A DNA stretch of 52,227 nt from a virus, in the IMG/VR virus record IMGVR_UViG_3300044695_002763, positions 1 through 52,227 of that record, one strand, 5' to 3'. Below, one piece after another: positions 10,796-39,251 of the stretch (position 1 is the stretch's first letter; each line of letters begins with the position of its first letter). A program made the translations under genes and the position numbers. The notes under the pieces were generated by a model, which saw only the letters and a list, made by a program, of their open reading frames with translations, was not told where the DNA came from and did not search any database.

Positions 10796-11059
10796 ATGAC
10801 TGGGTTCATCCTCTGCCAAGCGTTCTTGAGTGAATCGCTCGATACCGAGGATGAAACCCTTCGCGAATTAACCGAGCGCGATATTGGGTTCGTAGAGGTG
10901 CTGATAAACGTAAACGATATAAGCCACGTTTTTAGCGGCGAGTATGAAGATTCAATAATTCAACTGCGTAGCGGCAATATCATAAAAGTAAAAAATGACA
11001 TCGACCACATTATCCAACAAATTAGGCGGGCGACTGCGCTCAATATTTTCGCGCAATAA
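10796..11059 (+). CDS. Small hypothetical protein upstream of the tail chaperone
   Basis: This is an 87-aa protein. I use ATG 10796 (MTGFILCQAF), because the bases around it are identical in both units whereas the in-frame sequence before it, from a possible start at 10769, varies. It contains acidic stretches (LDTEDETLRELTERD) and a C-terminal helix. Its end overlaps the chaperone gene by 65 bases. Unit 2 copy: 46480-46743. It could be a tail assembly factor by position; nothing in the sequence proves it. Confidence 0.55.
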   Translation: MTGFILCQAFLSESLDTEDETLRELTERDIGFVEVLINVNDISHVFSGEYEDSIIQLRSGNIIKVKNDIDHIIQQIRRATALNIFAQ

Positions 11060-11657
11060 GGCAAACCCCGAGTTACCTAAATACAACTTAGTCCAGCTAT
11101 TCAGTAAAGACGGCTTTAGCTATTACCGTTTCCCAAAAGAAACCTCGTTACCGCTCGAACGCTTTGCAATGAGTATGAGTTTACTCGAGCGATTAAGTAG
11201 CGGGCTTTCGGGTTCTGAGATGGAAGCAATACTAACTGAAATGGAAAAGGCTTTAGGCGCTGGTTTAACGAACCCGCGCAACGCCGCGTTAGTTGCTACC
11301 TACATACACGTTATTCGTGAAAGGCAAAACACGGTAATACACCGCGACCTATTGTTGAACATTGCCGCAACGTGGGTAATACGCTCGGACGAAAACCCCG
11401 CGATTATAAACCCCGATATTCACGAATCGAAACTAAAACTATTTGAGGCGATGGCAGAGGAGGGGTCGCACGATTTTTTTACAGGTTTGGATATCGAGCC
11501 GCTGAAACCCTTGTTACGTATGTCGCCCGACGAGTTAACGACATTATGGGATTACAACCGAGTCCAAATACAAAAGCTGCACGAAACCTTAGCGGCGTTG
11601 AGTTCTCACCGCGACGACGGGCAAAGCAAGCGCAAGACAAATTTAGGGAGCAAGTGA
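10995..11657 (+). CDS. Tail assembly chaperone, short product (gpG-like)
   Basis: This is a 220-aa, mostly helical protein (LERFAMSMSLLERLSSGLSGSEME...). It lies just upstream of the tape measure gene, where siphophages encode gpG/gpGT-type chaperones that keep the tape measure soluble during tail assembly. A slippery heptamer A AAT TTA at 11639-11645, correctly phased, sits four codons before the stop, so part of the ribosomes shift to the -1 frame. The same site and frame arrangement exist in unit 2 (47323-47329). The family is inferred from context and the frameshift signal, since these proteins diverge fast. Confidence 0.75.
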   Translation: MTSTTLSNKLGGRLRSIFSRNKANPELPKYNLVQLFSKDGFSYYRFPKETSLPLERFAMSMSLLERLSSGLSGSEMEAILTEMEKALGAGLTNPRNAALVATYIHVIRERQNTVIHRDLLLNIAATWVIRSDENPAIINPDIHESKLKLFEAMAEEGSHDFFTGLDIEPLKPLLRMSPDELTTLWDYNRVQIQKLHETLAALSSHRDDGQSKRKTNLGSK

Positions 11658-11767
11658 TGCACATCGCGGGCGGTAACGTTCTCGAGTTTAAAGAATTAAT
11701 GCAATCCGATATTGACGTTTTTTTGATTAAATTTGAGGTGTTCTATAAGCAACACCAAAATGGCTGA
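11639..11767 (+). CDS. Tail assembly chaperone, -1 frameshift extension (gpGT-like)
   Basis: After slippage at AAATTTA (11639-11645) the -1 frame adds 40 residues (REQVMHIAGG...YKQHQNG), making a fusion of about 257 aa. The extension is conserved in unit 2 at the amino acid level, and its stop overlaps the tape measure start (ATG 11760). In lambda, the T part recruits the tail tube to the tape-measure-bound chaperone. The independent reading that begins at 11546 is probably not used as a separate start. Confidence 0.75.
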   Translation, partial: KFREQVMHIAGGNVLEFKELMQSDIDVFLIKFEVFYKQHQNG

Positions 11768-14519
11768 AGTCTTAATCAAATATAAAGCCGACGCGGGCGA
11801 CCTCGAGGCGATTGTAAATAAGATAAACAAGGTTAACGACGATGTAGTTAAAAGCGCAACGGAGTCGAGTAAGCGGGTTGGTGATGAATTTAAAAAAATA
11901 GGAGCGACCGCAGTAAACGCTTTTGCTAACCAACAATTAGCGGGGGCGGTTAAAAACCTCAATACTCAAGTTGCTGGTCTTACAACAGGGTTAAGACTAA
12001 ACGTAGACGCTTTAAAAAAGTTTGATAGCGCAACAGATAATACCACCGATAGCTTAAAAGATTTCGACGAGGAAGTAAAAAAGACTAATAAAATATTAGT
12101 TCAATCGGCTCAAGACGTTGCAAAGTACGAAGATAGGCTACGCGAATTATCGGTCGCAGGGCAGCGCAACACAGACGAGTTCAAAGATATTGCGAAGGCG
12201 GTCGGCGAATATAAGTCGGCTATTATTGCAGCCGATAGGGCTGTTGATTTATACGCTAAGTCAACCGATGCCGCAACGGGTCGAATAGGCGAGCTTGAAG
12301 ATAAACTATACGACTTAGCTTTAGCTGGGAAAGCGAATACCAAAGAGTTTAACGACTTGGTAAAAGAGGTTGCAACGGTTAGGCGCGCTGTAATTGAAAC
12401 CGATGCGCAGGTCGATGCGCTTGCGCAACGCGGCGCTAAGTTAAAAGGCTTCGTTCAAAGCGTTGAATTAGTTGGCGTAGCTTTTCAAGCTGTCGAAGGC
12501 GCAGCCGCTTTAACGGGCAAAGAAAACGAAGAACTGCAAAAGACTTTAGTAAAGTTGCAGGCAATCATGGCTATAACCTCAGCGCTCGAACAAGGGCGCG
12601 TTATTATCATGGAGCAGCTTGCAGCTAAAACGGGTATCGCTGGTTTGGCAATGAAAGCCTATACGTTTGTTACCAACGGCGCTGCAACCGCTACTAAAAT
12701 TTGGCGCGGTTTGTTAGTGGCAAGTGGTATAGGTGCTGTTGTGGCAATACTTGGAACGCTTGCCTCTAAATTCTTGGATAACAAGGAAGCGACAAACGAA
12801 GCAGCCGAAGCAGCAAAGGAGTACCAAAAAGCTATTGACGACTTAAATAGAACGGCTGCGCAATCAGCAGTTAAAGCGGGTAACGCTCAAATAGAATTAT
12901 TACAAAAGCAAGGTAAAATAACCGAGGAACAGGCTAAACGCTTAATAGTTTTTAATGAATTGCAAACGGGCTTATCCGATGCCGCTGTTAGCGCTAAAGA
13001 CAAAGAAACCGAAGCGCTTAAAAGGCTTGAAGAACAAAAAGCCCTCGATATAAAAACATTTGGTAAAGTTACTAAAGCAACCCAAGAACAATTAGGCAAA
13101 GATTTACTCGCTATTGAAACCGAAAGGAGTAATAAAGAAAAAGAGTTACGAGCGCAAGCCGAAATAGAAATAATAAACATAAGTAACGAGCGAAAAGAAA
13201 AAGAAAAAGAAAACGCAAAGAAAGCCGCTGAAGACTTAGCCAAAGCTCGCGAAAACTTAGCTAACTTAGAACTGGATGCCCTACAAGCATCTTTAGATGA
13301 ACGCGAATCTATACTTAATGAAAGCAATAATAAAATTGCAGAACTTGAAAAGGCGTTTATTGATAGCAAGTTTAAGAAAGGAAGTGACGAAGAAATAAAA
13401 CTACAAAACGCAATACAATCTATTAAGGAAGACGCGACAAAGCAAATTGCAGCTATTGACCAAAAGGCTTTAGAAGAAAAGATTGCAAAAGAAAAGGAAG
13501 CCGCCGAAAAGATTGCCGAAGAACAAAGAGCCGCCGCCGAATCGTCAATAAATACCCAAATTAATTTAGTTAAGGAATTAGAAATTGAACTGGGTAGTTC
13601 TTTGGAGCGCCGCGTTGAGTTAATTAATTTAGAAGCCGACCAGCGTAAGTTGTCTGCTACAAATAGTATTAAAGACGAAAAGGAACGAGCAAGTGCAATC
13701 GAGTTAATCAATGCGGAAACTCAGCAAAAAATAAGGGATGAACAAAAGAAAACAACCGACCAAGCGGTCAATGATGCTTTCGAGATTGCCGATGCGGTTG
13801 CAAATACTTTAGGCGCTATTGTAGAATTACAGGGCGCACAATCACAGGCGCGCATCGATGAAATAAATAATACAGCAACTTTAGAACAGGAAGCGATTAA
13901 TAAGAGCTTAGAAAGCGAAGCCGATAAGCAGCGTAAACTCGATGCTTTACGCTTGCGCACAAGCCGACAAATAGCAGCCGAAAAGACAAAGCAGGCTAAA
14001 TCAGAAAGGGCGTTAAACGTGTTTAAGGCGGTAATTGATACCGCAGCCTCGATAACTAAAACGGGTGCGCAGCTCGGTTATCCTGCGGCTATTCCTTTTC
14101 AAGTTGCGGCGGGTGTTATCGGTGCTACTCAAATCGCTACCATATTAGCGCAGCCGTTACCTAAGTTTAAAAAAGGGGGTATCGTAGGGGGTCGAAGCCA
14201 CGACGCGGGCGGTACTATAATCGAAGCCGAGCGCGGTGAATTTGTAGTTAACCGCAACGCAGTAACGCGCCACCGTTCCGAACTCGACGCTTTAAACACA
14301 TCGAGCGCGGCGTTTAAGCGTTTAATAGATGAGCGATATGTACGCCCTGCTTTAAATTACTACATGGGCAAAAAGGAGCGCGCTATTAACGTCAATGCTT
14401 CATTAAACAGTAAAGGCATGGAGAAAGAAATTAAAGGCATGAGGCGCGACCTAAAGCGTAATAAAACGATTGTAAATATTAACGGAAATGATTCGCGGTA
14501 CGCATGGCATCTGAATTAA
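11760..14519 (+). CDS. Tape measure protein
   Basis: This is a 919-aa protein; ATG 11760 is chosen because it overlaps the frameshift extension stop and gives MAEVLIKYKADAG, shared with unit 2. Long Ala/Glu/Lys-rich coiled coils (about 60-240 and 390-730) flank a hydrophobic membrane-like section (about 285-340, GLLVASGIGAVVAILGTLAS). A Gly-rich end with PKFKKGGIVGG and an ERGEFVVNRNAV motif is typical of tape measures. It sets tail length and is ejected into the cell. The length implies a siphovirus tail of moderate size. The middle differs strongly from unit 2 while both ends are conserved. It overlaps the next gene by 16 bases. Confidence 0.92.
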   Translation: MAEVLIKYKADAGDLEAIVNKINKVNDDVVKSATESSKRVGDEFKKIGATAVNAFANQQLAGAVKNLNTQVAGLTTGLRLNVDALKKFDSATDNTTDSLKDFDEEVKKTNKILVQSAQDVAKYEDRLRELSVAGQRNTDEFKDIAKAVGEYKSAIIAADRAVDLYAKSTDAATGRIGELEDKLYDLALAGKANTKEFNDLVKEVATVRRAVIETDAQVDALAQRGAKLKGFVQSVELVGVAFQAVEGAAALTGKENEELQKTLVKLQAIMAITSALEQGRVIIMEQLAAKTGIAGLAMKAYTFVTNGAATATKIWRGLLVASGIGAVVAILGTLASKFLDNKEATNEAAEAAKEYQKAIDDLNRTAAQSAVKAGNAQIELLQKQGKITEEQAKRLIVFNELQTGLSDAAVSAKDKETEALKRLEEQKALDIKTFGKVTKATQEQLGKDLLAIETERSNKEKELRAQAEIEIINISNERKEKEKENAKKAAEDLAKARENLANLELDALQASLDERESILNESNNKIAELEKAFIDSKFKKGSDEEIKLQNAIQSIKEDATKQIAAIDQKALEEKIAKEKEAAEKIAEEQRAAAESSINTQINLVKELEIELGSSLERRVELINLEADQRKLSATNSIKDEKERASAIELINAETQQKIRDEQKKTTDQAVNDAFEIADAVANTLGAIVELQGAQSQARIDEINNTATLEQEAINKSLESEADKQRKLDALRLRTSRQIAAEKTKQAKSERALNVFKAVIDTAASITKTGAQLGYPAAIPFQVAAGVIGATQIATILAQPLPKFKKGGIVGGRSHDAGGTIIEAERGEFVVNRNAVTRHRSELDALNTSSAAFKRLIDERYVRPALNYYMGKKERAINVNASLNSKGMEKEIKGMRRDLKRNKTIVNINGNDSRYAWHLN

Positions 14520-16465
14520 AGTTTTTAATCGATAACCTCGATAGGGGGCAACCATTAAACCCCGAGGACTTTGGTATAACAATAAACGAGGACGAAACAA
14601 TAGGGGCGCGAATAGTTTCGTTTGATAATGAGCTAACGTTTGGCGGTGATGTGTTCGGCTACCTTTACGCTAAACTCGAAACCTCGGGATACTGCGAACT
14701 GGTTCGCGTAGAGGTGCAATACCTTTGCGAATCTAATGGCGTTTGGGAACGTTTAGTAGATGGTTATATAATTGCAACGGAGTCTAACTTTTTGCTCGAT
14801 AGGTGTCAGGTTAAGACAAAGGTTTACGACGAAACGTTTAGCACAAAGATTAACAATAACAAGTCAATACCATTTTCGCTACGCCTTACAACATCGAAGA
14901 ACGGTACGCCAATAACGCCACCAACTATTCGACGGCTCGATATATTCGACCCTGCGATGGGTACATGGTATCCTAATTTTACTTATGGGTATGGAGTTTA
15001 CGATGTGTTCGCGCATTTAGTAAACTGCATGAGCGACGGGCTGGTAGATTTTGCCTCTAACCTTTTTGATTATACCGACCCGACAAACGACATACCAGTA
15101 TACACGCAGGGCAATATGTTACGAACGCGCACCGATATTGAAATCTCGGCTACGTTTGAACAGTTGTATTTAACTTTAAAACAAAAGTTAAACCTCGGTA
15201 TGGGTTTCGAAAGGCAAGCAAACGGGCGACCTTTATTGCGGATTGAACCCGTTAGCTATTTCCAACAATCAACAGCGTCGGTTAATCTTTACGACCAGCC
15301 CGAAATCGAAATGAAGTTCGATGTATCGAGGCTTTACGCTTCGGTTAATTTTGGTTCGTCGCCTTATTTATTCCCGAACGAGTGCAACGGGGGCGACGGC
15401 TTTTGTTTATTTCCGCAACCAGTATTTCAGGGCTTTCGTGATGAATCTTTTGGCTTCGTTGGTGAGTGCAATACATCGAATGTATTAAACTTAAAAACGA
15501 GCGACGTAGTGTTCGACCATAACGTTATCGAAGATATATTAAGGTTTCAAAGTCAAGACCACGAATTAACCCCTATAATAATTCAAAGCGATTACCGTAG
15601 CCGATTTGCGCCTAATTCATTTAGTGCGCGGGTTTATAATCTAACGGGGCTAACGATTCCATTTTACAACCTTAACTATTCTAACGAGGGCGTTTCGAGT
15701 AATTGGTTAAATGGCTTTCCTAATTCTTTGCAAGGTTTCTTTAATCAAGGAGACCCATTGTTAACGCCGTTTTTAGCGCGTGTAATAAACGCACCTACGC
15801 TACCTTCATGGGAAATTATAAATACTACATCAACTTCGTATAGTGAATATAGCGGCGACTTTATCCCGTTTAATAATGAGATTATAGACACGGGAAATAA
15901 CTTTAACGTTCGAAGGTATCGCGTGCCGTTCTCGGGTATTTATACTTTTAACCTTTCTTTAGTTTCTTTACCAAGTGTAGGCAACAGAACTTTGATAGGA
16001 ATTATAAAACGTTTAGATGGTTTGGGCAATGTTCAACAAGAGGTACAAGGTACACCCGTGAGCGGTGGCATTGCATTGAACACAACCGCAGCCGCTACCT
16101 TTTATTGTAATGAAGGGGATTTAGTTGTAGCTGATATTACAGGCGCTTCGAGCGTTGGACCTCAAATCGAAACTATTCAAATAAACGTGCTTTCGTTTTT
16201 TGAAGGCGAAGGCACAAACTTTCAAAGCCCCGATTTACAGCCCGTAGATATTAACGACGTGCAAGCCTATCTATACAAGTTTAAGCGCCCGTTAAGCATG
16301 GCAGAGATAAACGCGATAACAAGCGAAACATCGAAGCCTATTTTATTAGGGCGCAAAGATGATAGCCTCGCGGTTACGCCTACCTACATTAAAAACATTC
16401 AAATAGAATCAGTAATGCGCAAGGGCGCACAATTCGAGCTACGTTCTAACAAACTACTTCCATGA
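14504..16465 (+). CDS. Distal tail/baseplate protein
   Basis: This is a 653-aa beta-rich protein with few Cys, directly after the tape measure, where siphophages encode distal tail and tail-associated hub proteins. The N-terminal region (about 1-120) reads like a beta-sandwich: GARIVSFDNELTFGGDVFGY. The C-terminal third contains a jelly-roll-like segment around YRVPFSGIYTFNLSL that resembles a C1q/TNF-like or carbohydrate-binding fold. No protease or lysozyme motif is visible. It overlaps both neighbours. Unit 2 copy (50131-52089) is one residue shorter, with clustered changes near residues 350-360. The exact role is inferred from position. Confidence 0.65.
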   Translation: MASELKFLIDNLDRGQPLNPEDFGITINEDETIGARIVSFDNELTFGGDVFGYLYAKLETSGYCELVRVEVQYLCESNGVWERLVDGYIIATESNFLLDRCQVKTKVYDETFSTKINNNKSIPFSLRLTTSKNGTPITPPTIRRLDIFDPAMGTWYPNFTYGYGVYDVFAHLVNCMSDGLVDFASNLFDYTDPTNDIPVYTQGNMLRTRTDIEISATFEQLYLTLKQKLNLGMGFERQANGRPLLRIEPVSYFQQSTASVNLYDQPEIEMKFDVSRLYASVNFGSSPYLFPNECNGGDGFCLFPQPVFQGFRDESFGFVGECNTSNVLNLKTSDVVFDHNVIEDILRFQSQDHELTPIIIQSDYRSRFAPNSFSARVYNLTGLTIPFYNLNYSNEGVSSNWLNGFPNSLQGFFNQGDPLLTPFLARVINAPTLPSWEIINTTSTSYSEYSGDFIPFNNEIIDTGNNFNVRRYRVPFSGIYTFNLSLVSLPSVGNRTLIGIIKRLDGLGNVQQEVQGTPVSGGIALNTTAAATFYCNEGDLVVADITGASSVGPQIETIQINVLSFFEGEGTNFQSPDLQPVDINDVQAYLYKFKRPLSMAEINAITSETSKPILLGRKDDSLAVTPTYIKNIQIESVMRKGAQFELRSNKLLP

Positions 16466-18108
16466 GTTACACATCCATACCAAATCAACCAATATTATTT
16501 AACAGCGTTTTACCCGAGCAATGTGAGGGCTGTAATAGTAATTTTGCGCAGCTTGCCGATTTTAATGACCAATTATTTTGGCAGCTCGAAGCGGGGCAAT
16601 GTGGCGAGGTTGAGTTCTTTGGCGAAACATTGGTCGAACCTTGGACACAGGACGGCAGCACGATTACGGGCGGTGGCACAAGCACAGGCGGCTACATTGC
16701 AAGCTACTTGCGTTATGATGTGGTGCAAAATTTTATCGTTACCATAACCGTAAGCGATATTGTAGGCGTGCTAAGGGTAACAATAAACGGCGGCTCGTTT
16801 CTCGATGTATCAACACAAGGCACACACACGCTATATTTAACAACCTCTGACTTAACAAGCAATGCAGTTTTAATAGGCTTTAGCAATGGCACGCAGCCCT
16901 TCGATGGTTCATTCATTATCGACAGCGTTGTGCCAGTTCCAAACGGCGGCTTATTCGCTGGCATTGTGGATGCCGAAACGCTTGCAGTTGTTCAAGTGTT
17001 AGACCCTGTTATTACAACGAGCCAACAATATTTAACGGCTGCAATTAATTTAAGCGATTACGATATTGAGGCGGGCTGCTATCGATTAGCGATTGCGGAC
17101 TATTGCGAGAATACTTGCGGGCAATACTTCATATACAATCCTTACTTTAATGGAGACCCTTTATGTATTGATTGCTTGCCTATCGGTTGGACTTCCGTTC
17201 CAACAGTAGGCTCGGATGATTGGGTCGTTGATGGTGGCGAAGCAACGATTAATTTAACCGCCTTAGGCAATTCGGCGAACCTTGTTTCAATTACTGAGCT
17301 TTGCGAGGATACGGATTACTATGTCGAAATAGAAGTCGAATCGATAAGCAATGCAAGATTGAGGTTTGCCGTTGATGGTATAGGCTACGGCTCTTTTATA
17401 ACTACGGCGGGAACGTATAGCTTTACAATTACTGTAACAAGTGGCGGCGCGGTTAGTTTAGCAGGCTCGCAACTTGGGGCTTCACTCGATGGGGATATAG
17501 TTGTTAAGCGTGTAACGGTTCGAGCCGATAAGAATTGGGCTAAGTACGATAAGTATAGCGACCTTATAAGCATTGGAGATTATTCGGACGATTGCAGATT
17601 TTTTAAGATAGAAGGGTGCAACGGCGAAAACCAATTTGGATTAGGTTTTTATGGCACTTCGTTTTTAGCTGGTATTCGATTAGAGGGGCGACGATTCCAA
17701 CCGCAATACGATACCGATACCGATTTATTTAGATATGCTTCGGGGCGTTGGCAGGCAAGTTATGTAGACCGCAAAAAGAAATTGAGCTATTATTTTGGGC
17801 GCTTGCCCGAATACGTTTTAGATTTTCTTTCGATTGTTTTCTACTTCGATAATTGTTACATAAACGGCGACTTAGTTTTCCCAGCCGATAATGAGTTCCC
17901 TACAATCGAATATGATAATGCAGACGATTTAGGCGCGTTAACGATAGACTTGTATAATAAGCGCGATAAGGTGCGTAAAACGGTTTGTGTTGGCGTGGAT
18001 GCTAATTGCCTACCATCGATATTAGATAACGACTCAGAGCCGTTTATATTAACGCAGGATAGCGAGCGTTTAATTACGCAAGATGTGATTAACTTATATC
18101 AAGAATAA
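16462..18108 (+). CDS. Tail protein with two beta-sandwich (CBM-like) domains, receptor-binding candidate
   Basis: This is a 548-aa protein that starts at ATGA with the previous stop. The N-terminal part is Cys-containing (EQCEGCNSNFAQLADFNDQLFWQ). Two similar beta-sandwich segments follow, about residues 75-155 (FIVTITVSDIVG...) and 265-350 (YYVEIEVESISNARLRFAV...), both ending in a DG-x-I-V/I-x-x-V strand. They look like carbohydrate-binding or Ig-like domains used by phages of Bacteroidota to touch host glycans. The C-terminus ends with a LTQDSERLITQD motif. Host recognition is an inference. The unit 2 homologue begins at 52086 and is cut by the window end. Confidence 0.6.
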   Translation: MSYTSIPNQPILFNSVLPEQCEGCNSNFAQLADFNDQLFWQLEAGQCGEVEFFGETLVEPWTQDGSTITGGGTSTGGYIASYLRYDVVQNFIVTITVSDIVGVLRVTINGGSFLDVSTQGTHTLYLTTSDLTSNAVLIGFSNGTQPFDGSFIIDSVVPVPNGGLFAGIVDAETLAVVQVLDPVITTSQQYLTAAINLSDYDIEAGCYRLAIADYCENTCGQYFIYNPYFNGDPLCIDCLPIGWTSVPTVGSDDWVVDGGEATINLTALGNSANLVSITELCEDTDYYVEIEVESISNARLRFAVDGIGYGSFITTAGTYSFTITVTSGGAVSLAGSQLGASLDGDIVVKRVTVRADKNWAKYDKYSDLISIGDYSDDCRFFKIEGCNGENQFGLGFYGTSFLAGIRLEGRRFQPQYDTDTDLFRYASGRWQASYVDRKKKLSYYFGRLPEYVLDFLSIVFYFDNCYINGDLVFPADNEFPTIEYDNADDLGALTIDLYNKRDKVRKTVCVGVDANCLPSILDNDSEPFILTQDSERLITQDVINLYQE

Positions 18109-24148: not shown

Positions 24149-24421
24149 ATGCCAATATACGAAGGTTATAACGTAACGGCATCCGACCGCGAGGGCAAGA
24201 AATACAAAGCCGTTGACGCTGAAGGAAACGAGGTGCATTTTGGCGCGTCGGGTTATCGAATAAAGGTAGGCACGGATGCGGGTAATAATTATTGCGCCCG
24301 TAGTAACGGCATCCCTTCGCCGCGTTTTTCTGCTAATTGGTGGGCGCGTCAACTATGGAGCTGCGAGGGTAATCGTTCGGTAAGCGATAAACCTTTTTTT
24401 GGTAAAATCGATTTACCTTAA
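24149..24421 (+). CDS. Small conserved protein (DUF5754-like pattern)
   Basis: This 90-aa protein contains VHFGASGYRIKVGT and YCARSNGI followed by a Trp-rich region (NWWARQLWSC). The pattern HFGxxGYxxxxGTxxGxxYCAR is reminiscent of small proteins of phages and large viruses placed in DUF5754, of unknown role. It follows the scaffold by two bases and is followed by a terminator, so it closes the head operon. Confidence 0.6.
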   Translation: MPIYEGYNVTASDREGKKYKAVDAEGNEVHFGASGYRIKVGTDAGNNYCARSNGIPSPRFSANWWARQLWSCEGNRSVSDKPFFGKIDLP

Positions 24422-24466
24422 TACCTTTGTAACGTTCATAACGTGATTAGTATTAGGGTAATTAGA

Positions 24467-24496
24467 AAGGGCTGGTTTCGCTTCCAGTCCTTTTTT
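24467..24496 (+). terminator. Intrinsic terminator closing the head operon
   Basis: Stem AAGGGCTGG/CCAGTCCTT (24467-24475/24484-24492; one G-T pair), loop TTTCGCTT, followed by six T. Confidence 0.85.
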
Positions 24497-24548
24497 ATGC
24501 TGTAAATTAAGCAGTTACAAAAAAAGTTTAAATAATTGTATGAAATAG

Positions 24549-24579
24549 TTTGCAGATTCAAATAATGTTTGTATGTTTG
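24549..24579 (+). promoter_or_regulatory. Bacteroidota-type promoter
   Basis: TTTG (24549-24552), 19-base spacer, TATGTTTG (24572-24579). The same boxes occur before 4394, 33982 and 39045, which suggests coordinated (early) expression of these small genes. Confidence 0.85.
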
Positions 24580-24607
24580 CAGAGTTAAACATTTAAACAT
24601 TCACACT

Positions 24608-24814
24608 ATGAACACAGCAAACCTAATAAACGAAAACAACGTAGCACAATTTAAGTGCAAAGTTTTAACGCTTGTATGCCCTGCATACGGAACGGCTAAC
24701 TTGTTAAACGAAATTGAAACTGCAATGAGTATGTTTCAATATGAAAACGAAAGCGTTGAAACAATTGTTTTCGATTACTGCTTTTCTTGGCATCAAGATA
24801 AATATTCGATATAA
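24608..24814 (+). CDS. 68-aa small protein with its own promoter and terminator
   Basis: The start at 24608 is preferred; the upstream in-frame sequence is promoter and leader. The protein (MNTANLINENNVAQFKC...) has three Cys and an acidic C-terminal half. It stands alone between a promoter (24549-24579) and a terminator (24839-24868) within the late region, but its promoter matches those of the early genes 4394 and 33982. It is therefore probably an early or constitutively made accessory protein. Function unknown. Confidence 0.65.
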   Translation: MNTANLINENNVAQFKCKVLTLVCPAYGTANLLNEIETAMSMFQYENESVETIVFDYCFSWHQDKYSI

Positions 24815-24838
24815 GTTTTAGCTTTAACCTAACCTTCG

Positions 24839-24867
24839 AGCCTACCTAACAAGTAGGCTTTTTTTTA
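24839..24867 (+). terminator. Intrinsic terminator
   Basis: AGCCTAC/GTAGGCT stem (24839-24845/24853-24859), loop CTAACAA, then a run of nine T. Confidence 0.9.
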
Positions 24868-24875
24868 TTTAATGT

Positions 24876-24904
24876 TTTGCGTTTTCAAAAAATTATTATA
24901 TTTG
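24876..24904 (+). promoter_or_regulatory. Promoter of the noncoding RNA region
   Basis: TTTG (24876-24879) and TATATTTG (24897-24904), spacer 17 bases. No coding frame follows for over 500 bases, so this promoter appears to serve an RNA. Confidence 0.7.
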
Positions 24905-24909
24905 CAACA

Positions 24910-24999
24910 GATAGTTGGGGGCTATCGTATAGAGCTTGGATATTACGTTTCGATATATCTGCCCTTAAATAGACCCCCCGCTATTTAGGGGCTTTTTTG
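24910..24999 (+). ncRNA. Attenuator-like small RNA (terminator with competing helix)
   Basis: The RNA begins with hairpin GATAG/CTATC (24910-24914/24922-24926), loop TTGGGGG. It ends with a terminator of 12 bp (24961-24972/24981-24992), loop ACCCCCCG, and T-run 24993-24998. GGGGGCTAT (24917-24925) can instead pair with ATAG-A-CCCCC (24970-24978), which would break both hairpins. The two loops can also kiss. This is either a 90-base small RNA or a switch that controls read-through into the RNA downstream. Confidence 0.65.
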
Positions 25000-25319
25000 T
25001 TCCTAACAGGCTGATGAACCGACCAGTTCAGCCGTGAGCATAGGCGAGGAATCGCAATCAAAAGCAGTCGTTAAAGAACTTATAAACTAAGGTATGCGTA
25101 GGTGCGCTGCAAACTCGAGGGGGGCAACACCGACCAAGTGCAAGGGGCTAAAGGCTCAAGTATACCGAGGGGGTTTGTTGAAATAGTTAGCGCGATTGAA
25201 AAGAAGGGACGAGCGGTTAACAACCTCAAATAAAAAAAAGGGGTACACGGGCAATGAATCTTTTAAGTACGATTAAAAATCGTTTAACTTCCTTGCACGG
25301 GAGAACCCCCTCGCTATGC
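25000..25319 (+). ncRNA. Large structured noncoding RNA candidate before the capsid gene
   Basis: This is a gene-free stretch with long-range pairings. GTGCAAGG (25138-25145) pairs with CCTTGCAC (25291-25298), and CGAGGGGGTT (25166-25175) pairs with AACCCCCTCG (25304-25313). Because the strands interleave, the two helices form a pseudoknot. Local hairpins are GGCTGA/TCAGCC (25009-25014/25028-25033), GCGA-GGAA-TCGC (25044-25055) and ACGAT/ATCGT (25269-25283). G-runs are frequent, unlike in the neighbouring genes. I cannot match it to GOLLD, ROOL, tmRNA, RNase P RNA or a group I intron. Its role could be in packaging, capsid expression or counter-defence; this is unknown. Confidence 0.6.
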
Positions 25320-25350
25320 TTTGAAATGAAAAAAACATTTCGTAAATTTA
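25320..25350 (+). promoter_or_regulatory. Promoter of the capsid gene
   Basis: TTTG (25320-25323), 19-base spacer, TAAATTTA (25343-25350; last base differs from TAnnTTTG). It lies directly after the structured RNA candidate and leads into the capsid leader. Confidence 0.65.
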
Positions 25351-25371
25351 CAGCGCTCAAATGACAAATTA

Positions 25372-25431
25372 TTTTTAGGCGTGAATGTTTGCCGCCTGTT
25401 AAGTGCAAACGTTAAATTTAAAACCTAAAAA
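25372..25431 (+). ncRNA. Pseudoknot leader of the capsid gene
   Basis: Hairpin AGGCG/CGCCT (25377-25381/25393-25397) carries GTTTGC (25387-25392) in the loop, which pairs exactly with GCAAAC (25405-25410). A competing outer helix TTTTTAGG/CCTAAAAA (25372-25379/25424-25431) shares AGG with the first hairpin. The layout repeats that of the leader at 18145-18195. It ends four bases before the capsid ATG, so it may tune mRNA stability or translation. Confidence 0.6.
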
Positions 25432-25435
25432 CAAA

Positions 25436-26482
25436 ATGTCAATTTCTCGCATTTTATCCGAATGCCCGAATGTGCAAATGAGCCTTTCGGAGCTTTTTAT
25501 CGAAGTAGGTCAGCGCGAACAGCTACCTTTCCTCGAGTTCCTTAATTCACCTGAAAACGTAAAGCTAATCCGTCAAGAGGTTTCGACTGGAAACGGCAAG
25601 CTAAAAACCGTTGAGGCTCGTTGGATTCAGCGTTTACCTGAAACAGAAGTAGAAGAAGGTGGTAACATCTTAACTTGTACGGCTACCAACACCTACGGCG
25701 ATAGCACCACTACGTACACGCTTGAAACGACCGACACGTATATCGCTGAACAATTGATTCAGGCTGATGCAATCGCCCGTCATTGTCAAGAAAACAGCCG
25801 TTACGTTCTCGAGTCTATCATGCGTTTAATGGACGTAATGGATAGAAAAGTAGCAAGCGCCGCAGCTACTCAAGCCGTTGCCTCTATCGGCAAATGGGGT
25901 ACTGAGGTTAGCGGTTACTACACCGTATCGGGCGACTGCTTGCGCATTGCAACACGTCAAACAGGCGGGCAAGCATTGAACGAGTTTGCTTTGGCTGACA
26001 TCCTTCAAGCTACGCGCATGGCTAACTACCCAGCTGCACCCGTTGTATTTGGTGGCGCTGAAATGCAGCGTTATGCTAATGCGGTGCAAGCTGGTTGCTG
26101 CACGCAATTCGGTATCGACTTGTTAGCGATTTCGCAGCAGAACGGTTTCGGATTCGCTTACGATGCACGTTTAGCAGCCGCTCAAGGTTCGCAGCTAAAG
26201 AACTTAGCAACGACCGCAGGCGCGATGCAATGGTTATCGTTCAATATGGCAGAATGGAACGCAGGTGTTACACCTGTGGCGGGTAGCAATTACAGCAAAA
26301 CAATTGCTTTTACTCCTGCGGGTTTGCCTGTTGATTTAACCATGAAAGACGATTGCGGTAATTTGTCAATCGTATTGACGCATACTGGTAAACTCGTTAC
26401 ATTACCTGACGATATTTACGAAGCAGGCGACAAATACGCAGGCGTAAATTACGTAAACTGTATTGAGATTGCAAACCCGTAG
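25436..26482 (+). CDS. Major capsid protein
   Basis: This 348-aa protein starts at ATG 25436, after its leader; an earlier start would begin inside the RNA structure. Evidence is context (after scaffold, before connectors), its own promoter and structured leader, and HK97-like composition. An N-terminal region with VEARWIQRLPETE is followed by a helix-rich section (ESIMRLMDVMDRKVASAAATQAV, spine-helix-like) and a beta/Ala-rich C-terminal part with VVFGGAEMQRYANAV. Fold assignment is inferred. A slippery AAACCCG followed by a 12-bp stem-loop ends the gene, so a longer minor form is likely. Confidence 0.8.
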   Translation: MSISRILSECPNVQMSLSELFIEVGQREQLPFLEFLNSPENVKLIRQEVSTGNGKLKTVEARWIQRLPETEVEEGGNILTCTATNTYGDSTTTYTLETTDTYIAEQLIQADAIARHCQENSRYVLESIMRLMDVMDRKVASAAATQAVASIGKWGTEVSGYYTVSGDCLRIATRQTGGQALNEFALADILQATRMANYPAAPVVFGGAEMQRYANAVQAGCCTQFGIDLLAISQQNGFGFAYDARLAAAQGSQLKNLATTAGAMQWLSFNMAEWNAGVTPVAGSNYSKTIAFTPAGLPVDLTMKDDCGNLSIVLTHTGKLVTLPDDIYEAGDKYAGVNYVNCIEIANP

Positions 26483-34539: not shown

Positions 34540-34565
34540 TTTTTAACCCTTTAATACTTTTTAAA

Positions 34566-35240
34566 ATGGCTTTAACAGCACCCGTAGGCGGAACGGCAAA
34601 CCGCCAAATCGCACCCGAGGGTAGTTACCCTGCGCGCTGCTATCAAATTATCGACCTCGGTACGACCGAACAAGGCGGTATTTATGCAGGCAAAAAACGC
34701 AAAGTTCAATTCCTATTCGAACTGCCAACCGAGAAAGCGGTATTCGATGAAAGCAAAGGCGAACAGCCGTACTACGTTCGCAGCATTTACACGCTATCGA
34801 TGAACGAAAAGGCTTTATTACGTCGCGATGTTTCGGCATGGCTCGGCAAAAAGTTAACTGATTCTGAAGCCTCAAAGCTCGATATTTTTAAGATGCTTGG
34901 GAAAACGTGCATGGTAAATATTGCGCACGTTACCAAAGGTGAAAACACCTATGCAAACATTATAAGTTTTGCGCCGCTTATGAAAGGCTACGAATGCCCC
35001 GCACCGATTAACGAGGCGTTTACCTACACCCCGACCGCGCACGAACAAGAAGTATTCGCAAAACTGCCCGAGTTTTTACAGGATAAGATTAAGGAATCGG
35101 ACGAATACAAAGCAATGACAACGGCAAGTTTTAAAAACGATTTTACACCTAAAACGCAGCCACCTCAGAACTTTGAAGACCTACCCGACATCGACGATAT
35201 TTTCGGACAAAAGGCGGCTAATGACTTACCGTGGGATTAA
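34566..35240 (+). CDS. Putative ssDNA-binding protein (unit 2)
   Basis: This is the second-unit homologue of the gene at 27-701, also 224 aa. I see only about eight amino acid changes, mostly conservative and in the linker after residue 155 (for example FEELPD to FEDLPD). The acidic tail ending NDLPWD is kept. The DNA carries many more silent changes than amino acid changes, which shows selection on the protein. Confidence 0.6.
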   Translation: MALTAPVGGTANRQIAPEGSYPARCYQIIDLGTTEQGGIYAGKKRKVQFLFELPTEKAVFDESKGEQPYYVRSIYTLSMNEKALLRRDVSAWLGKKLTDSEASKLDIFKMLGKTCMVNIAHVTKGENTYANIISFAPLMKGYECPAPINEAFTYTPTAHEQEVFAKLPEFLQDKIKESDEYKAMTTASFKNDFTPKTQPPQNFEDLPDIDDIFGQKAANDLPWD

Positions 35241-35248
35241 ATGATAAA

Positions 35249-35267
35249 GGGCGGCAAAGCGCCGCCC
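35249..35267 (+). terminator. Intergenic GC hairpin (unit 2)
   Basis: Identical GGGCGGC-AAAGC-GCCGCCC hairpin as at 710-728, kept despite divergence of the flanking bases. Confidence 0.5.
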
Positions 35268-35294
35268 TCTAACTTACCAAATAAATAAACATAC

Positions 35295-35966
35295 ATGAAC
35301 ACACTTGCAAAGGTACAAATACCAATCGAAAAAATATACCACGCGATAAATTCGCCTCAAACGTTAAACGCGCAATCGATAGTAGCGCGTAACACGGGCG
35401 GCGGCGAAGCGCTCTCGATTCAAAACGTAAGCGAATATACAGCAATGAACGCCGCTGTAAAAGACGTAAGCGATGCGGTTAAGGCAATCGAAGCAGCCCG
35501 TAAAGAGGTAACCACACCGCTCGAGCATTTCAAAAAGGAACTTATTAAGCTCGAAAAGGATGCCACAGCGCCGCTACTCGATTTTATCGAAGATGCTAAA
35601 AAGCGAATGGTAGAATATCACGAACGCCTCGAAGCCGAACAAGAAGCCGCCGAAGCGAAGCTAATAGCCGAAGCTGCTCAAAGCATCAAAGAAGCCGAAG
35701 CGGTTAGCGATGTAATCGCAGCGTTTACCGATAAGCTCTATGCCACCACAGTAGAGAATAGCCAAACGAAAAACATACGCAGCACCATTAAGGCGCGCGT
35801 TAACGGAGAGGTTAACTGGGTAAAGGTGCTTTCGGTTCAATTCGCATTTAACAACTTAAAGCCCGAAGATTTACTAAACGGCTTAGCCAAAGCAATGAAG
35901 GATTTAGGCGTTGATAGCATCGAAGGCATTGAGCTTTACGAACACAAAACCCAAGTAATCCGATGA
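35295..35966 (+). CDS. Coiled-coil phage protein (unit 2)
   Basis: This 223-aa homologue of 755-1426 has a few substitutions (for example EEKL to EAKL in the coiled coil, LPKAMKELGVDN to LAKAMKDLGVDS near the end). The start of the next gene here is different, marking the left edge of a swapped block. Confidence 0.55.
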   Translation: MNTLAKVQIPIEKIYHAINSPQTLNAQSIVARNTGGGEALSIQNVSEYTAMNAAVKDVSDAVKAIEAARKEVTTPLEHFKKELIKLEKDATAPLLDFIEDAKKRMVEYHERLEAEQEAAEAKLIAEAAQSIKEAEAVSDVIAAFTDKLYATTVENSQTKNIRSTIKARVNGEVNWVKVLSVQFAFNNLKPEDLLNGLAKAMKDLGVDSIEGIELYEHKTQVIR

Positions 35967-36010
35967 ACAATTACACCAATACAATAACAAACATTAAACA
36001 CTTAAAACCT

Positions 36011-36358
36011 ATGTACACTTTCACACAATTAACGCATAGTGAAATATGCGAACGAATCGAAACGGCACGCAAGCGCCACAAATTAACTAAAGCGGAGTTT
36101 AGCCGAATGGCTGGTTATACCTCATGCGCTCTAAACAAATGGCTAATTAATACAAGATTTAGCTCGGTATCTTATAACCGCGTAATGGATGTAATCAAAA
36201 AGCTCGATAATTCGCCCGAACAAATCGAAATTAAGTTTACCCCTAAGCCAGTTGAAAAGCAAACCTACGGCGTTTTAAGCATCGAAACTGCTATAAAAAT
36301 GCTAAAGGATGCAGGGTATAAGATTTCTAAACGAGTTGAAAAATGGGAGGAAATCTAA
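36011..36358 (+). CDS. Helix-turn-helix (XRE-like) regulator, unit 2 only
   Basis: This 115-aa protein is read from MYTFTQLTHSE; a 16-residue longer form from 35963 (ATGA overlap) is possible, but that segment looks like a leader. The helix-turn-helix runs about residues 12-45 (RIETARKRHKLTKAEFSRMAGYTS...LNKWL), typical of XRE/Cro-type DNA-binding proteins. The C-terminal part contains a second helical motif (IETAIKMLKDAGYKI). It replaces the unknown gene 1423-1818 of unit 1. A role in early-gene control or superinfection response is plausible. Confidence 0.75.
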   Translation: MYTFTQLTHSEICERIETARKRHKLTKAEFSRMAGYTSCALNKWLINTRFSSVSYNRVMDVIKKLDNSPEQIEIKFTPKPVEKQTYGVLSIETAIKMLKDAGYKISKRVEKWEEI

Positions 36359-36570
36359 TGCAAAACAAAATAACAGCCGTTGAATGGTTAGCCGTTCAAC
36401 TTGAAAAGTATTACGGAAATCAAAAAATTACAGATACCGAGGCGTTTATAACCGCCAAAGCAATGGAAGAACTGCAAATAATCGACGCGCACGATAGCGG
36501 ATACATTGACGGGCAAGGGCAAAAAAGTATATCAGCCGAACAATATTACACCGAAACCTATGGAGAATAG
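36358..36570 (+). CDS. Small YY-motif phage protein, paralogue A (unit 2)
   Basis: This 70-aa protein is read from ATG 36358, which overlaps the HTH stop (TAATG) and has a rare clear Shine-Dalgarno GGGAGG upstream. The C-terminal half (AFITAKAMEELQIIDAHDSGYIDGQG...) matches the unit 1 gene at 1815-2054, while the N-terminal half differs and begins TAVEWLAVQLEK. Function unknown. Confidence 0.65.
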   Translation: MQNKITAVEWLAVQLEKYYGNQKITDTEAFITAKAMEELQIIDAHDSGYIDGQGQKSISAEQYYTETYGE

Positions 36571-36769
36571 ACAAACAGCAGTTGAGTGGTATCATACAAA
36601 ATTAGCAGAGCCAACAACTCAAGCAAAAGATGTAAATACAATATTCCTATTAGCCAAAGCAATGGAGAAGGAGCAGATAGTTGATGCTTTTGATAATGGT
36701 GCTGAAGAATGGACACCGATTGAATATTCAGATGGGCAACATTACTACAATCACAATTTCGAATCATGA
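36560..36769 (+). CDS. Small YY-motif phage protein, paralogue B (unit 2)
   Basis: This 69-aa protein is read from ATG 36560. It is a diverged paralogue of the preceding gene: TAVEWYHTKLAEP, LLAKAMEKEQIVDAFDNG and YYNHNF line up with its neighbour. The tandem duplication exists only in unit 2. It overlaps both neighbours. Confidence 0.65.
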   Translation: MENRQTAVEWYHTKLAEPTTQAKDVNTIFLLAKAMEKEQIVDAFDNGAEEWTPIEYSDGQHYYNHNFES

Positions 36770-37347
36770 CACGCGAAGAATACATTAAACATCCAGCCAT
36801 AAGCGCAAGCCGTATAAAACGATTTTACACGGGCGACATAAGTTACGCGCAAACTGCGTTAGATGCAGGCGCGGCGTTCCATTTCGATTTACTTGAGCAG
36901 CCTTATGAAAGTATGCCACCAAACACGCAAAACGTTTATAATGCGATTCACGCGGTCGAAATGTTAGGCGAACTATTCGATAAATCGCATCACGAATACA
37001 TTACCCTAAACACGGTAACCGTTGGCGGCATAACGGTCGAAGGTAAAGGAATGATGGATTTATGCTGGCTTGAGCGCGGTATAATTGCCGACGTTAAAAC
37101 AACAAGCGCAAAGAATATAAAAGCCTTCGCCGCTGATATGGTAGCGCATTGTAACCATGTGCAAGCGGTTTGGTATTCGCTTTTGATGGGCTTTGACCCT
37201 CGGCAGTTTTACTATATAGGAGTACCGCCAAAGGTTAAAAAGTCGGGTAAGTTTAGCGACTTGTATTTGTACCGCCATAACGAGGATGAAATCGCAAGCG
37301 CAACGGATTTAATAATTAACTATTTGAACCATGAAGGAACGCGTTAA
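36766..37347 (+). CDS. PD-(D/E)XK exonuclease, RecE-like (unit 2)
   Basis: This 193-aa homologue of 2051-2632 keeps the catalytic residues (His39, Asp98, Asp109-x-Lys111, Gln133). Substitutions cluster near residues 25-35 (ISYAQTALDAGAAFHF). It has the same 17-base overlap with the next gene. Confidence 0.8.
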   Translation: MTREEYIKHPAISASRIKRFYTGDISYAQTALDAGAAFHFDLLEQPYESMPPNTQNVYNAIHAVEMLGELFDKSHHEYITLNTVTVGGITVEGKGMMDLCWLERGIIADVKTTSAKNIKAFAADMVAHCNHVQAVWYSLLMGFDPRQFYYIGVPPKVKKSGKFSDLYLYRHNEDEIASATDLIINYLNHEGTR

Positions 37348-37582
37348 ACAAACGAAATTTGATTACCTAAAGCTAATTAGCCAACTCGATAGGCTCATTA
37401 AATGGATGCCTGACACGGGTGTCGGGTATCAAAAAAAGTTAACCAAGTGCGCCGAGTTTTGGTGGCTGCATAAAGGAACCATACCAGCGAACACGATTGC
37501 AATACTTTTAAAAGTTGAAAGAACCGATTTAATAAACTTACTCAATGCGCAAATCATCGAAAGAGGCACTTACATACGCTAA
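37331..37582 (+). CDS. Small basic hypothetical protein (unit 2)
   Basis: This 83-aa homologue of 2616-2867 has two visible amino acid changes (METG to MPDTG region, PAST to PANT), against more silent changes. Confidence 0.65.
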   Translation: MKERVKQTKFDYLKLISQLDRLIKWMPDTGVGYQKKLTKCAEFWWLHKGTIPANTIAILLKVERTDLINLLNAQIIERGTYIR

Positions 37583-37808
37583 CGACCTCGGCGACCTAAC
37601 AGAGTTTATAGGACATACTTACAAAAACGTAGCTGCATATCTTTTATCTTGCGGCTTCGAATATTTAGAGTGCTGTTTTAAGTATCGTAAAGTTTTTAAC
37701 GACCACGAAAACAATCGAAGCATTTTAATAGACCTTTACGACGAAACAACCGAGCTAAAGGGGCGCGTTGAATACATGATAGTTTGTAATAGTATTTACA
37801 AACGATGA
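37545..37808 (+). CDS. Small hypothetical protein (unit 2)
   Basis: This 87-aa protein is identical to that of 2830-3093, although the DNA differs at silent positions. Strong conservation, unknown role. Confidence 0.68.
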   Translation: MRKSSKEALTYANDLGDLTEFIGHTYKNVAAYLLSCGFEYLECCFKYRKVFNDHENNRSILIDLYDETTELKGRVEYMIVCNSIYKR

Positions 37809-38197
37809 AAAGCCGCCAGCCACGCGAAAGCGATATTTATTCAGCCATTGCACGTTACATGAGTTTAAAGCACCCCGAAATACTTTTTAGGTTTGACTTT
37901 AGCGCAGGAACTAAAATGAGCATGGGGCAAGCAAGGGTACATAAAAGCATGAACCCGCAAAGAGGTTACCCCGATTTATTTATCGCTGCGCCGCGTGGAA
38001 ACTTTAGCGGTTTATTCATTGAAATCAAAAAAGGCGATTTTAAGCCGTTTAAACGCGATGGAACGCTAAAGCAAGATGAACACCTTACCGAACAATTTGA
38101 AGTCCTTACGCGGCTTAAAAACGCAGGTTTTGAGGCTTTGTTTTGCTCGGGCTTAGATGAGTGCATTGAAACGATTGAAAAGTATTTGAATAAATAA
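37805..38197 (+). CDS. VRR-NUC domain nuclease (unit 2)
   Basis: This 130-aa homologue of 3090-3482 has the catalytic set Asp57, Glu73-x-Lys75 intact. Changes such as HRGYPD to QRGYPD and GKFSGL to GNFSGL lie next to the active-site strands but not in them. Confidence 0.85.
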   Translation: MKSRQPRESDIYSAIARYMSLKHPEILFRFDFSAGTKMSMGQARVHKSMNPQRGYPDLFIAAPRGNFSGLFIEIKKGDFKPFKRDGTLKQDEHLTEQFEVLTRLKNAGFEALFCSGLDECIETIEKYLNK

Positions 38198-38211
38198 ATT
38201 TTGTAAATTTG
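38185..38211 (+). promoter_or_regulatory. Promoter of the replication gene (unit 2)
   Basis: TTTG (38185-38188), 15-base spacer, TAAATTTG (38204-38211), as in unit 1. Confidence 0.6.
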
Positions 38212-38215
38212 AAAC

Positions 38216-38327
38216 GTTTAGAGGTGGAATCCTAAACGAAACGAAATTAACTTATCGCCCTTTGGGTTTACGAGGCAAGGTGTATCCGAGCCGATTCCAC
38301 CGTAAATTTCAAGGGGCTTTCTATTTT
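38216..38327 (+). ncRNA. Structured leader RNA (unit 2, covarying copy)
   Basis: The fold is the same as at 3501-3615 with changed bases. GTTTAG/CTAAAC (38216-38221/38232-38237) replaces TTCAG/CTGAA. Loop GGTGGAAT (38223-38230) pairs with ATTCCACC (38294-38301). GGTTTAC pairs with GTAAATT (38265-38271/38302-38308). GCCCTTTG pairs with CAAGGGGC (38257-38264/38310-38317). The inner AGGCAAGG...CCGAGCC hairpin is unchanged. The T-run is weaker (TTTCTATTTT), which argues that termination may not be its only task. Confidence 0.8.
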
Positions 38328-38954
38328 ATGAAAAAATCGTTTGTACTTTATACGGATAACTGGGTAACATTAAAGCACCTTTCTAATGAGCAACTCGGAG
38401 AATTAATGCGAATGCTTTTTGAATATCAAATCGAAGGTGCAACGCCTGAACCGTCAAACCCTCTATTTATTGCTTTCGGGTTTATTCGCTCCGCTATGGA
38501 TAGAGATTTAGAAAAATGGAACGAACGAGCTGAACGTGCGAGGGTTAATGGTTTAAAAGGTGGACGACCAAAAGAAAACCAAGATGGTTTACAAGAAACC
38601 CAAAAAACCCAGTCGGTTAAATCAAAACCCAAAAAACCTGTTAATGTAAGTGTAAGTGTTAATGATAGTGTAAGTGTTAATGTAAATGCAAATGCTAACG
38701 CTAACTTTAAAAAGTGGAGCGAGCAAGATTTGATTGAAGCTATGACACCTTACAAGGATAGATACCCTAAAGAACTTTTAAACGCTTTCTTTAACTATTG
38801 GACTGAGCCGCTCGCAAACGGTAAAATACGTTTGACCTCTCAAGACGCTTGGGATACTGGTCGAAGGTTGGTAACATGGAATAAACGCGACACCGATAAA
38901 CAACCTAAAAACTCAACAGTAACACGCGCCTCGATGGGGCTAAAGATGCAATGA
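38328..38954 (+). CDS. Replication initiator/organiser-like protein (unit 2, other C-terminus)
   Basis: This is a 208-aa protein. The N-terminal domain aligns with 3616-4302 (KSFVLY, LSNEQLGELMRMLFEYQ, GGRPKEN). The linker is a Val/Asn/Ser repeat, and the C-terminal domain (about 125-195, LIEAMTPYKDRYPKELLNAFFNYWTEP) is unrelated to that of unit 1. The final residues STVTRASMGLKMQ are again shared. An exchange of the C-terminal domain suggests a different origin or helicase contact, although the DnaB proteins are nearly identical. Confidence 0.7.
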   Translation: MKKSFVLYTDNWVTLKHLSNEQLGELMRMLFEYQIEGATPEPSNPLFIAFGFIRSAMDRDLEKWNERAERARVNGLKGGRPKENQDGLQETQKTQSVKSKPKKPVNVSVSVNDSVSVNVNANANANFKKWSEQDLIEAMTPYKDRYPKELLNAFFNYWTEPLANGKIRLTSQDAWDTGRRLVTWNKRDTDKQPKNSTVTRASMGLKMQ

Positions 38955-38985
38955 CAAAAATATTTTTAAAATAATTTAGAAAAAG

Positions 38986-39016
38986 TTTGCAGAATCAAAA
39001 AAGAGTTGTATGTTTG
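38986..39016 (+). promoter_or_regulatory. Bacteroidota-type promoter (unit 2)
   Basis: TTTG (38986-38989), 19-base spacer, TATGTTTG (39009-39016), the same as 4335-4365. Confidence 0.85.
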
Positions 39017-39044
39017 CCTCATCAAACTCTTAAACACTTACACA

Positions 39045-39251
39045 ATGACAACTTCAATTTTAACTACAAAACTTCGCAACGGTGTAACAGTATTAGCAAA
39101 AGCTGATAGGTATGGCATAAACGCCGTAGGTTACTCAAACCTAACACAAGCTAACGCACGTCAAATTAAACTTTCTTTAGAGGGTATTGATTGCTCGGTA
39201 TATCGCACACCATGTAATATGTCGGTAACCTACATTAAAATAAATAACTAA
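39045..39251 (+). CDS. Small highly conserved early protein (unit 2)
   Basis: This 68-aa protein is identical to that of 4394-4600. Only about three bases differ over the gene, far fewer than elsewhere, so the RNA or DNA itself may also be constrained or recently exchanged. Confidence 0.7.
   Translation: MTTSILTTKLRNGVTVLAKADRYGINAVGYSNLTQANARQIKLSLEGIDCSVYRTPCNMSVTYIKINN

What the first reader, a model, noticed from the sequence alone, without database searches (positions are those of the whole stretch)
24905..25315. Large pseudoknotted noncoding RNA candidate upstream of the capsid gene
A roughly 400-base gene-free region behind a TAnnTTTG promoter contains two interleaved long-range helices (25138-25145/25291-25298 and 25166-25175/25304-25313, 8 and 10 bp perfect) plus several local hairpins and G-runs. 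Size and complexity are like ornate phage RNAs such as GOLLD or ROOL, but I see no match. It is placed between the scaffold and capsid genes, where a packaging or assembly RNA could act.
Basis: partly seen in the sequence, partly recalled or inferred. Interest (0 to 1): 0.8.

Follow-up and report, generated by a model that had tools for sequence, protein, structure and literature searches.

The report
Swappable pseudoknotted phage RNA cassette
A group of uncultured viruses of bacteria carries, just before the gene thought to make its shell protein, a folded RNA of about 315 letters that makes no protein, and close relatives swap it for two other folded RNAs at the same spot, so it looks like an exchangeable accessory tool and not a fixed part of the virus.

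Summary
The region is a real, conserved, structured RNA, but not quite the one described. Three exact-pattern scans of IMG/VR found it in 11 other contigs, all at the same place in one clade of about 36-kb phages. Twelve aligned sequences support 17 helices: 98.6% of cells pair, and 17 of 98 pairs change on both sides (shuffles 4.8; slid controls 0-3). Departures from the commonest pair are G-U 24 times and A-C once, pointing to a + strand RNA. The second helix is not conserved; its 3' strand pairs instead with 25116-25123. Close relatives carry one of three different RNAs here (A, this one; B and C, on the opposite strand). All share the leader design, and the types are scattered over the capsid tree. 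The slot also holds Mom, DNA methylase, GIY-YIG and GNAT genes. It is an RNA cassette in an accessory hotspot; a packaging role is unlikely. I favour an attenuated, trans-acting counter-defence or takeover RNA; that function is inferred. Nothing in Rfam matches A; C shares one hairpin with HOLDH.

The parts
24876..24904 (+). Promoter: TTTG-type upstream element and TATATTTG (TAnnTTTG) at 24897-24904
   Evidence: Invariant in 12 of 12 carriers for the TATATTTG box and the upstream TTTTG in 11 of 11; the same junction matches 17 Flavobacterium phage records. The consensus itself is recalled.
24910..24926 (+). Leader hairpin LA (stem 24910-24914/24922-24926), loop with GGGGG
   Evidence: 100% of cells paired in 12 sequences
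24961..24998 (+). Intrinsic terminator: 12-bp stem 24961-24972/24981-24992 and T run
   Evidence: Terminator scan; stem invariant in 12 of 12
24917..24979 (+). Loop-loop pairing of the leader: 24917-24921 with 24975-24979
   Evidence: All 5 pairs form in 12 of 12, 2 pairs with changes on both sides; the same design in B/C leaders
25004..25319 (+). Large pseudoknotted RNA, class A
   Evidence: 12-sequence covariation, strand bias of G-U over A-C, 12 carriers
25009..25033 (+). Hairpin H0 (25009-25014/25028-25033)
   Evidence: Invariant stem in 12 of 12: conserved, but no covariation
25038..25319 (+). Closing helix P1 (25038-25043/25314-25319)
   Evidence: 97.2% of cells paired
25044..25055 (+). 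Hairpin P2 (25044-25047/25052-25055)
   Evidence: 3 pairs with changes on both sides
25078..25268 (+). Long-range helix P3 (25078-25082/25264-25268)
   Evidence: 3 pairs with changes on both sides, all in L069
25091..25166 (+). Helix P4 (25091-25095/25162-25166) with inner P4a (25101-25104/25128-25131) and P5 (25145-25149/25153-25157)
   Evidence: One compensatory pair in each
25116..25313 (+). Pseudoknot helix PK1 (25116-25123/25306-25313)
25138..25298 (+).
   Evidence: Invariant in 12 of 12
25174..25258 (+). Helix P8 (25174-25180/25252-25258) with P9 (25186-25191/25216-25221) and P10 (25224-25227/25240-25243)
   Evidence: P9 has 2 and P10 has 1 compensatory pairs; P8 varies on one side only, 95.2% paired
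25269..25283 (+). Hairpin P11 (25269-25272/25280-25283)
   Evidence: 2 pairs with changes on both sides
25320..25360 (+). Likely promoter of the capsid gene (TAAATTTA, TAAATTTG in some relatives), kept whichever cassette is present
   Evidence: Sequence and relatives; activity inferred
25436..26482 (+). Putative major capsid gene
   Evidence: Gene order after portal; no family match of its own

Best explanation
This is an accessory RNA cassette in a phage hotspot. Shown by comparison: a leader (promoter, hairpin, intrinsic terminator, loop-loop pairing) is followed by a roughly 315-nt pseudoknotted RNA, conserved as RNA on the + strand, and other phages of the clade carry one of two other structured RNAs at the same place. 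Inferred: RNA polymerase starts a few bases after 24904. The leader can fold either as separate hairpins, which terminate, or as a long duplex between them, which reads through, so the leader meters how much large RNA is made. The large RNA, closed by P1, works in trans as a counter-defence or host-takeover factor. Different phages carry different alleles because hosts or rival phages select for change, as is plausible for the DNA-modification genes in the same slot.
For: 17 helices with 17 compensatory pairs and the G-U/A-C bias show an RNA. The leader motif was found at this slot only: 21 hits in 83 sources, both strands; its loop pairing covaries; the two leader folds are near equal in energy in the window (-26.1 and -26.0). 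Three alternative RNAs occur, B and C also with compensatory helices. Exchange on the capsid tree: 11 label changes against 13.1 for shuffles. Slot neighbours in relatives are Mom, GIY-YIG, DNA methylase and GNAT.
Against: No transcript has been seen. No partner or target is known. The counter-defence role rests only on neighbours and on exchange. There is no terminator after 25319, so in class A the RNA may be joined to the capsid mRNA. In several class A leaders the hairpin fold is clearly favoured over the duplex, which would mean mostly a short RNA.
Confidence: 0.42

Rival explanations
1. The RNA is a cis-acting 5' region of the capsid transcript that tunes capsid expression or mRNA stability.
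For: Class A is co-directional with the capsid gene and no terminator lies between them.
Against: Classes B and C are encoded on the opposite strand at the same place; L003 and most relatives have no RNA; the capsid gene keeps its own promoter-like box.
Confidence: 0.15
2. It is an assembly or packaging RNA, working like the phi29 pRNA.
For: Place next to head genes; loop-loop pairs could also form between molecules, as in ring-forming RNAs.
Against: Absent from, or replaced in, close relatives with 91-99% identical capsids, so not a fixed part of the head machinery.
Confidence: 0.06
3. The large RNAs belong to mobile elements (homing-type, RNA plus endonuclease as in HEARO/OMEGA arrangements); class A is a form that lost its protein.
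For: Class C RNA is followed by a GIY-YIG ORF in L013 and L061; the cassette types move between phages.
Against: In L063 the same RNA is followed by Mom instead; class A and B have no ORF; A matches no intron or HEARO model.
Confidence: 0.15
4. The leader and large RNA form a superinfection-control system: the short terminated RNA acts in trans on leaders with matching loops, as antisense immunity RNAs do.
For: Loop letters vary between phages but always match within a leader.
Against: Trans action is untested; the large RNA would need a separate role.
Confidence: 0.12
5. It is a structured DNA element (recombination, replication or packaging site), and the repeats are not an RNA.
For: Intergenic, exchangeable, full of inverted repeats.
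Against: Departures from the commonest pair are G-U 24 times and A-C once, a strand bias expected for RNA; dedicated promoter and terminator.
Confidence: 0.04

Closest known systems
GOLLD and ROOL ornate large RNAs
   Same: Large pseudoknotted phage RNAs of unknown function; kissing loops matter in their cages (PMC12286853, passages)
   Different: No Rfam match; about 315 nt against 659 nt for the ROOL studied and over 800 for many GOLLD; no tRNA genes in the window
HOLDH RNA (RF02997)
   Same: Class C, the alternative at this slot, shares the first hairpin with HOLDH at 21-23 bits
   Different: Far below the 319-bit cut-off; class A shows no match
phi29 pRNA (recalled)
   Same: Phage RNA with complementary loops near head functions
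   Different: Not universal in the clade, exchangeable, ends in an intrinsic terminator
HEARO / OMEGA RNAs (recalled)
   Same: Structured RNA upstream of a nuclease ORF, in class C
   Different: No ORF with class A; nuclease is a lone GIY-YIG domain; no model match
RNA-based anti-CRISPRs, Racr (PMC10651486, listing and start of abstract)
   Same: Phage-encoded non-coding RNA as a counter-defence agent is a known idea
   Different: Racrs mimic CRISPR repeats; here a large pseudoknotted RNA, and repeat mimicry was not tested
P4 CI immunity RNA and plasmid antisense attenuators (recalled)
   Same: A small RNA with complementary loops and a terminator, loop letters varying between relatives
   Different: Complementarity here lies within one leader; no trans action shown

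Membership tests
GOLLD, ROOL, HOLDH, HEARO, group I intron or any Rfam 15 family | Match to the family covariance model at its gathering score | tested here: not met
   0 matches in the window; none of these at E up to 5 in 24400-25500; 0 matches in 14 related loci
Ornate large phage RNA (as a kind) | Long non-coding RNA with many conserved helices and a pseudoknot | tested here: met
   17 helices, 17 compensatory pairs, PK1 and PK2 crossing P3 and P4
Ornate large phage RNA (as a kind) | Assembles into multimers or cages | not testable with these tools
   Needs gel, light scattering or cryo-EM
phi29-type packaging RNA | Present in every genome that uses the packaging motor | tested here: not met
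   Absent or replaced in close relatives
HEARO / OMEGA RNA | Adjacent guide-using nuclease (HNH/RuvC type) | tested here: not met
   No ORF in class A; class C has GIY-YIG or Mom
Transcription attenuator | Intrinsic terminator upstream of the cargo, with a mutually exclusive pairing | tested here: met
   Terminator; loop pairing covaries; both folds computed
Transcription attenuator | Read-through that responds to a signal | not testable with these tools
   Needs transcription assays
Moron (accessory cassette with own promoter) | Present in some and missing or replaced in close relatives, with its own promoter | tested here: met
Counter-defence factor | Protects the phage from a host defence system | not testable with these tools
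   Neighbourhood only: Mom and DNA methylase in the same slot of relatives

The most novel reading that the evidence does not exclude
An allelic series of unrelated, non-coding 'effector RNAs' exchanged at one phage locus. They sit behind a common leader design whose hypervariable, self-complementary loops mark kinship, so that the terminated leader RNA of one phage acts in trans on the leader of another (RNA-based superinfection control), while the large RNA disarms a host system.
Probability: 0.12. Interest if true: 0.93.

Novelty: new variant of a known kind. Interest (0 to 1): 0.75.

Why it matters
The functions of GOLLD and ROOL, the best-studied ornate phage RNAs, remain poorly understood (PMC12286853, passages). 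Here natural allele exchange gives a genetic handle: phages with nearly the same capsid differ by which structured RNA they carry, in a slot that also takes DNA-modification genes. That makes the question 'what are large phage RNAs for?' testable by swapping or deleting one small cassette. The covarying loop-terminator leader would be a new regulatory element.

Tried and rejected
Known RNA families: rejected for class A. Cultured phages: blastn found, for class A, the promoter/terminator junction in 17 Flavobacterium phage records and short matches in microviruses; tblastn of the capsid found nothing. Plasmids gave one 26-base chance match. Bacterial genomes: three exact-pattern hits in Microvirga, a Chloroflexi MAG and an alphaproteobacterial MAG, judged chance from a single 21-base match each and not examined further. 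The extra hit of the third viral pattern, L138, was chance. The remaining hits of the 16-base pattern showed no extended match by blastn. A group I intron or OMEGA-type RNA was considered because class C has a GIY-YIG ORF, but no model matched. Capsid structure prediction failed (mean pLDDT 31.6) and the PDB sequence search gave only a chance row (E 0.65). Literature searches for such RNAs or leaders (open-licence PMC papers only) listed no description of this RNA.

Rows left out: one search skipped duplicate loci and L086-L117, leaving 83 sources; it missed carriers L020, L056, L061, L063 and L069, whose stems or promoter deviate from the strict rule. One search used 9 of 15 class B/C leaders (near copies L007, L012, L015, L016, L061 and the later-found L056 were left out); its outer pair fails in L002 and L018. 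The tree leaves out L084, whose capsid is partial. A first structure script had helices off by one base; one search replaced it.

Full report
What was checked. The interval 24905-25315 has no ORF of 60 aa or more on the + strand, and its promoter TATATTTG lies at 24897-24904. Rfam gives nothing. From the window alone the case was modest: folding z -2.1 with 2 of 100 shuffles as good, 5 perfect long-range 8-mer helices against 1.1 expected, and one 10-mer helix against 0.063.

Relatives. The protein of 25436-26482 has 205 relatives among the IMG/VR candidates, of which the best 80 were kept. Blastn found RNA A in 9 of these 80 (L004, L008, L011, L014, L017, L029, L030, L069, L072). Pattern scans added L084 and L118 and no other real carrier. 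All 12 sequences, window included, have the RNA at the same place before the capsid gene.

Structure of class A. On the alignment of 12 I searched all helices of at least 4 pairs and assembled 17 that can coexist. In the count 98.6% of 1172 cells pair, 17 of 98 pairs have a change on both sides (shuffles 4.8, 0 of 500 as high), and sliding the partner by 1 to 3 columns gives 0 to 3. The structure was derived on the same alignment, so the paired percentage is partly by construction; the counts of double changes are the firmer evidence, though the helices were also picked with them in view. Some support hangs on one sequence: all three double changes of P3 are in L069. Departures from the commonest pair are G-U 24 times and A-C once, as expected if the + strand is the folded molecule. 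Gaps of 1, 2, 3 and 9 alignment columns across the RNA speak against a reading frame.

The pseudoknot. P3 (25078-25082/25264-25268) and P4 (25091-25095/25162-25166) have compensatory support, and both are crossed by PK1 (25116-25123/25306-25313) and PK2 (25138-25144/25292-25298).

The leader. Between promoter and large RNA lie a hairpin, a small stem, and an intrinsic terminator. The loop of the first hairpin is complementary to the terminator loop, and both change together: in class A all 5 pairs form in 12 of 12 sequences, with 2 compensatory pairs. A strict scan for this motif in 83 sources gave 21 hits, all at this slot, on the + strand for class A and on the - strand for classes B and C; it missed five carriers whose stems or promoter deviate. 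In nine distinct B/C leaders six of seven loop pairs form in all nine and four pairs are compensatory; shuffling the 3' loops among sequences never reached the observed pairing in 2000 trials. The terminator stem in B/C also covaries. Separate hairpins and the long duplex are nearly equal in energy in the window; in most B/C leaders the duplex is favoured, and in several class A leaders (L014, L017, L029, L030, L069) the hairpins are. An attenuator is the simplest reading; it is not shown.

Three RNAs, one slot. Of the 80 capsid loci, 9 carry A, 7 carry B and 7 carry C; the other 57 gave no match, some because the contig ends too early. Among the 19 loci with capsids of 91% identity or more (L002-L020), 17 have a readable slot (L010 and L019 are cut): 5 carry A, 6 B, 5 C and one (L003) none. 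B and C are encoded on the - strand. Both have compensatory helices, three changed pairs in the best helix of each. On a tree of 30 capsid genes the four labels need 11 changes against 13.1 for shuffled labels, as low in 17 of 200: the cassettes are exchanged almost freely. Some rows are near copies (L013, L015 and L016; L005 and L007; L012 and L018).

What else sits there. Class C RNAs are followed on their strand by a GIY-YIG protein (L013; L061) or, in L063, by a Mom DNA-modification protein (Pfam Mom 6e-25; PHROG Mom-like 1e-31). Relatives without RNA have a DNA methylase (L053) or a GNAT protein (L051) in the slot. The first hairpin of class C matches positions 7-61 of HOLDH at 21-23 bits, with E-values of 1e-5 to 6e-5 per record in 3 of 12 records, far below the 319-bit cut-off; one of 14 control genomes also gave a sub-threshold match. 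It also matches Betaproteobacteria-1 at 26 bits, below its cut-off of 49.4.

Interpretation. A fixed packaging or assembly part would not be missing from most relatives or traded for unrelated RNAs on the other strand. A cis element of the capsid mRNA fits class A only. The shared leader design, the exchange, and the neighbours that modify or cut DNA point to an accessory, trans-acting RNA, most likely against host defences or in host takeover. That last step is inference from the company it keeps.

Known relatives by kind. GOLLD and ROOL are phage-borne RNAs of unknown function that form cages through kissing loops and other contacts (passages read in PMC12286853). HOLDH is known here only from passages on its kink-turn (PMC8191799). 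Class A matches none of them and is smaller than GOLLD and ROOL. I rate it a new RNA family of a known kind, with a new arrangement: a covarying loop-terminator leader and natural replacement by other structured RNAs.

Confidence. That this is a conserved structured RNA: about 0.95. That it is an exchangeable accessory cassette: about 0.9. That the leader attenuates: about 0.5. That the large RNA is a counter-defence or takeover factor: about 0.45. The single figure given for the best explanation covers its functional core (an accessory, trans-acting counter-defence or takeover RNA); rival figures overlap with it, since superinfection control by the leader and a mobile origin could also be true.

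Noticed in passing
window 34540-52227 against 1-16603: The window holds one phage-length unit and then about half of a second, related one (78-97% identical in pieces totalling about 14 kb): tandem related prophages or an assembly join of two phages.
   Followed up: partly
L013:4430-4766 (- strand) and L006, L009, L061, L063: Class C RNA: structured (compensatory helices), first hairpin like HOLDH and Betaproteobacteria-1 below cut-off, followed by GIY-YIG or Mom.
   Followed up: partly
L018:4470-4768 (- strand) and L002, L005, L020, L056, L128: Class B RNA: structured, with a first hairpin whose arms are exchanged by compensation in L056 and a loop of two G5 runs; no Rfam match.
   Followed up: partly
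window 24570-24860: A 68-aa ORF (24608-24814) with its own promoter-like box and terminator lies just before the RNA: a protein cassette of the same kind; other relatives carry other small ORFs there.
   Followed up: no
window 25004-25140: ACCGACC occurs twice in parts left unpaired or nearly so by the model (H0 loop and at the end of P4a), almost invariant in 12 sequences; a possible binding motif.
   Followed up: no
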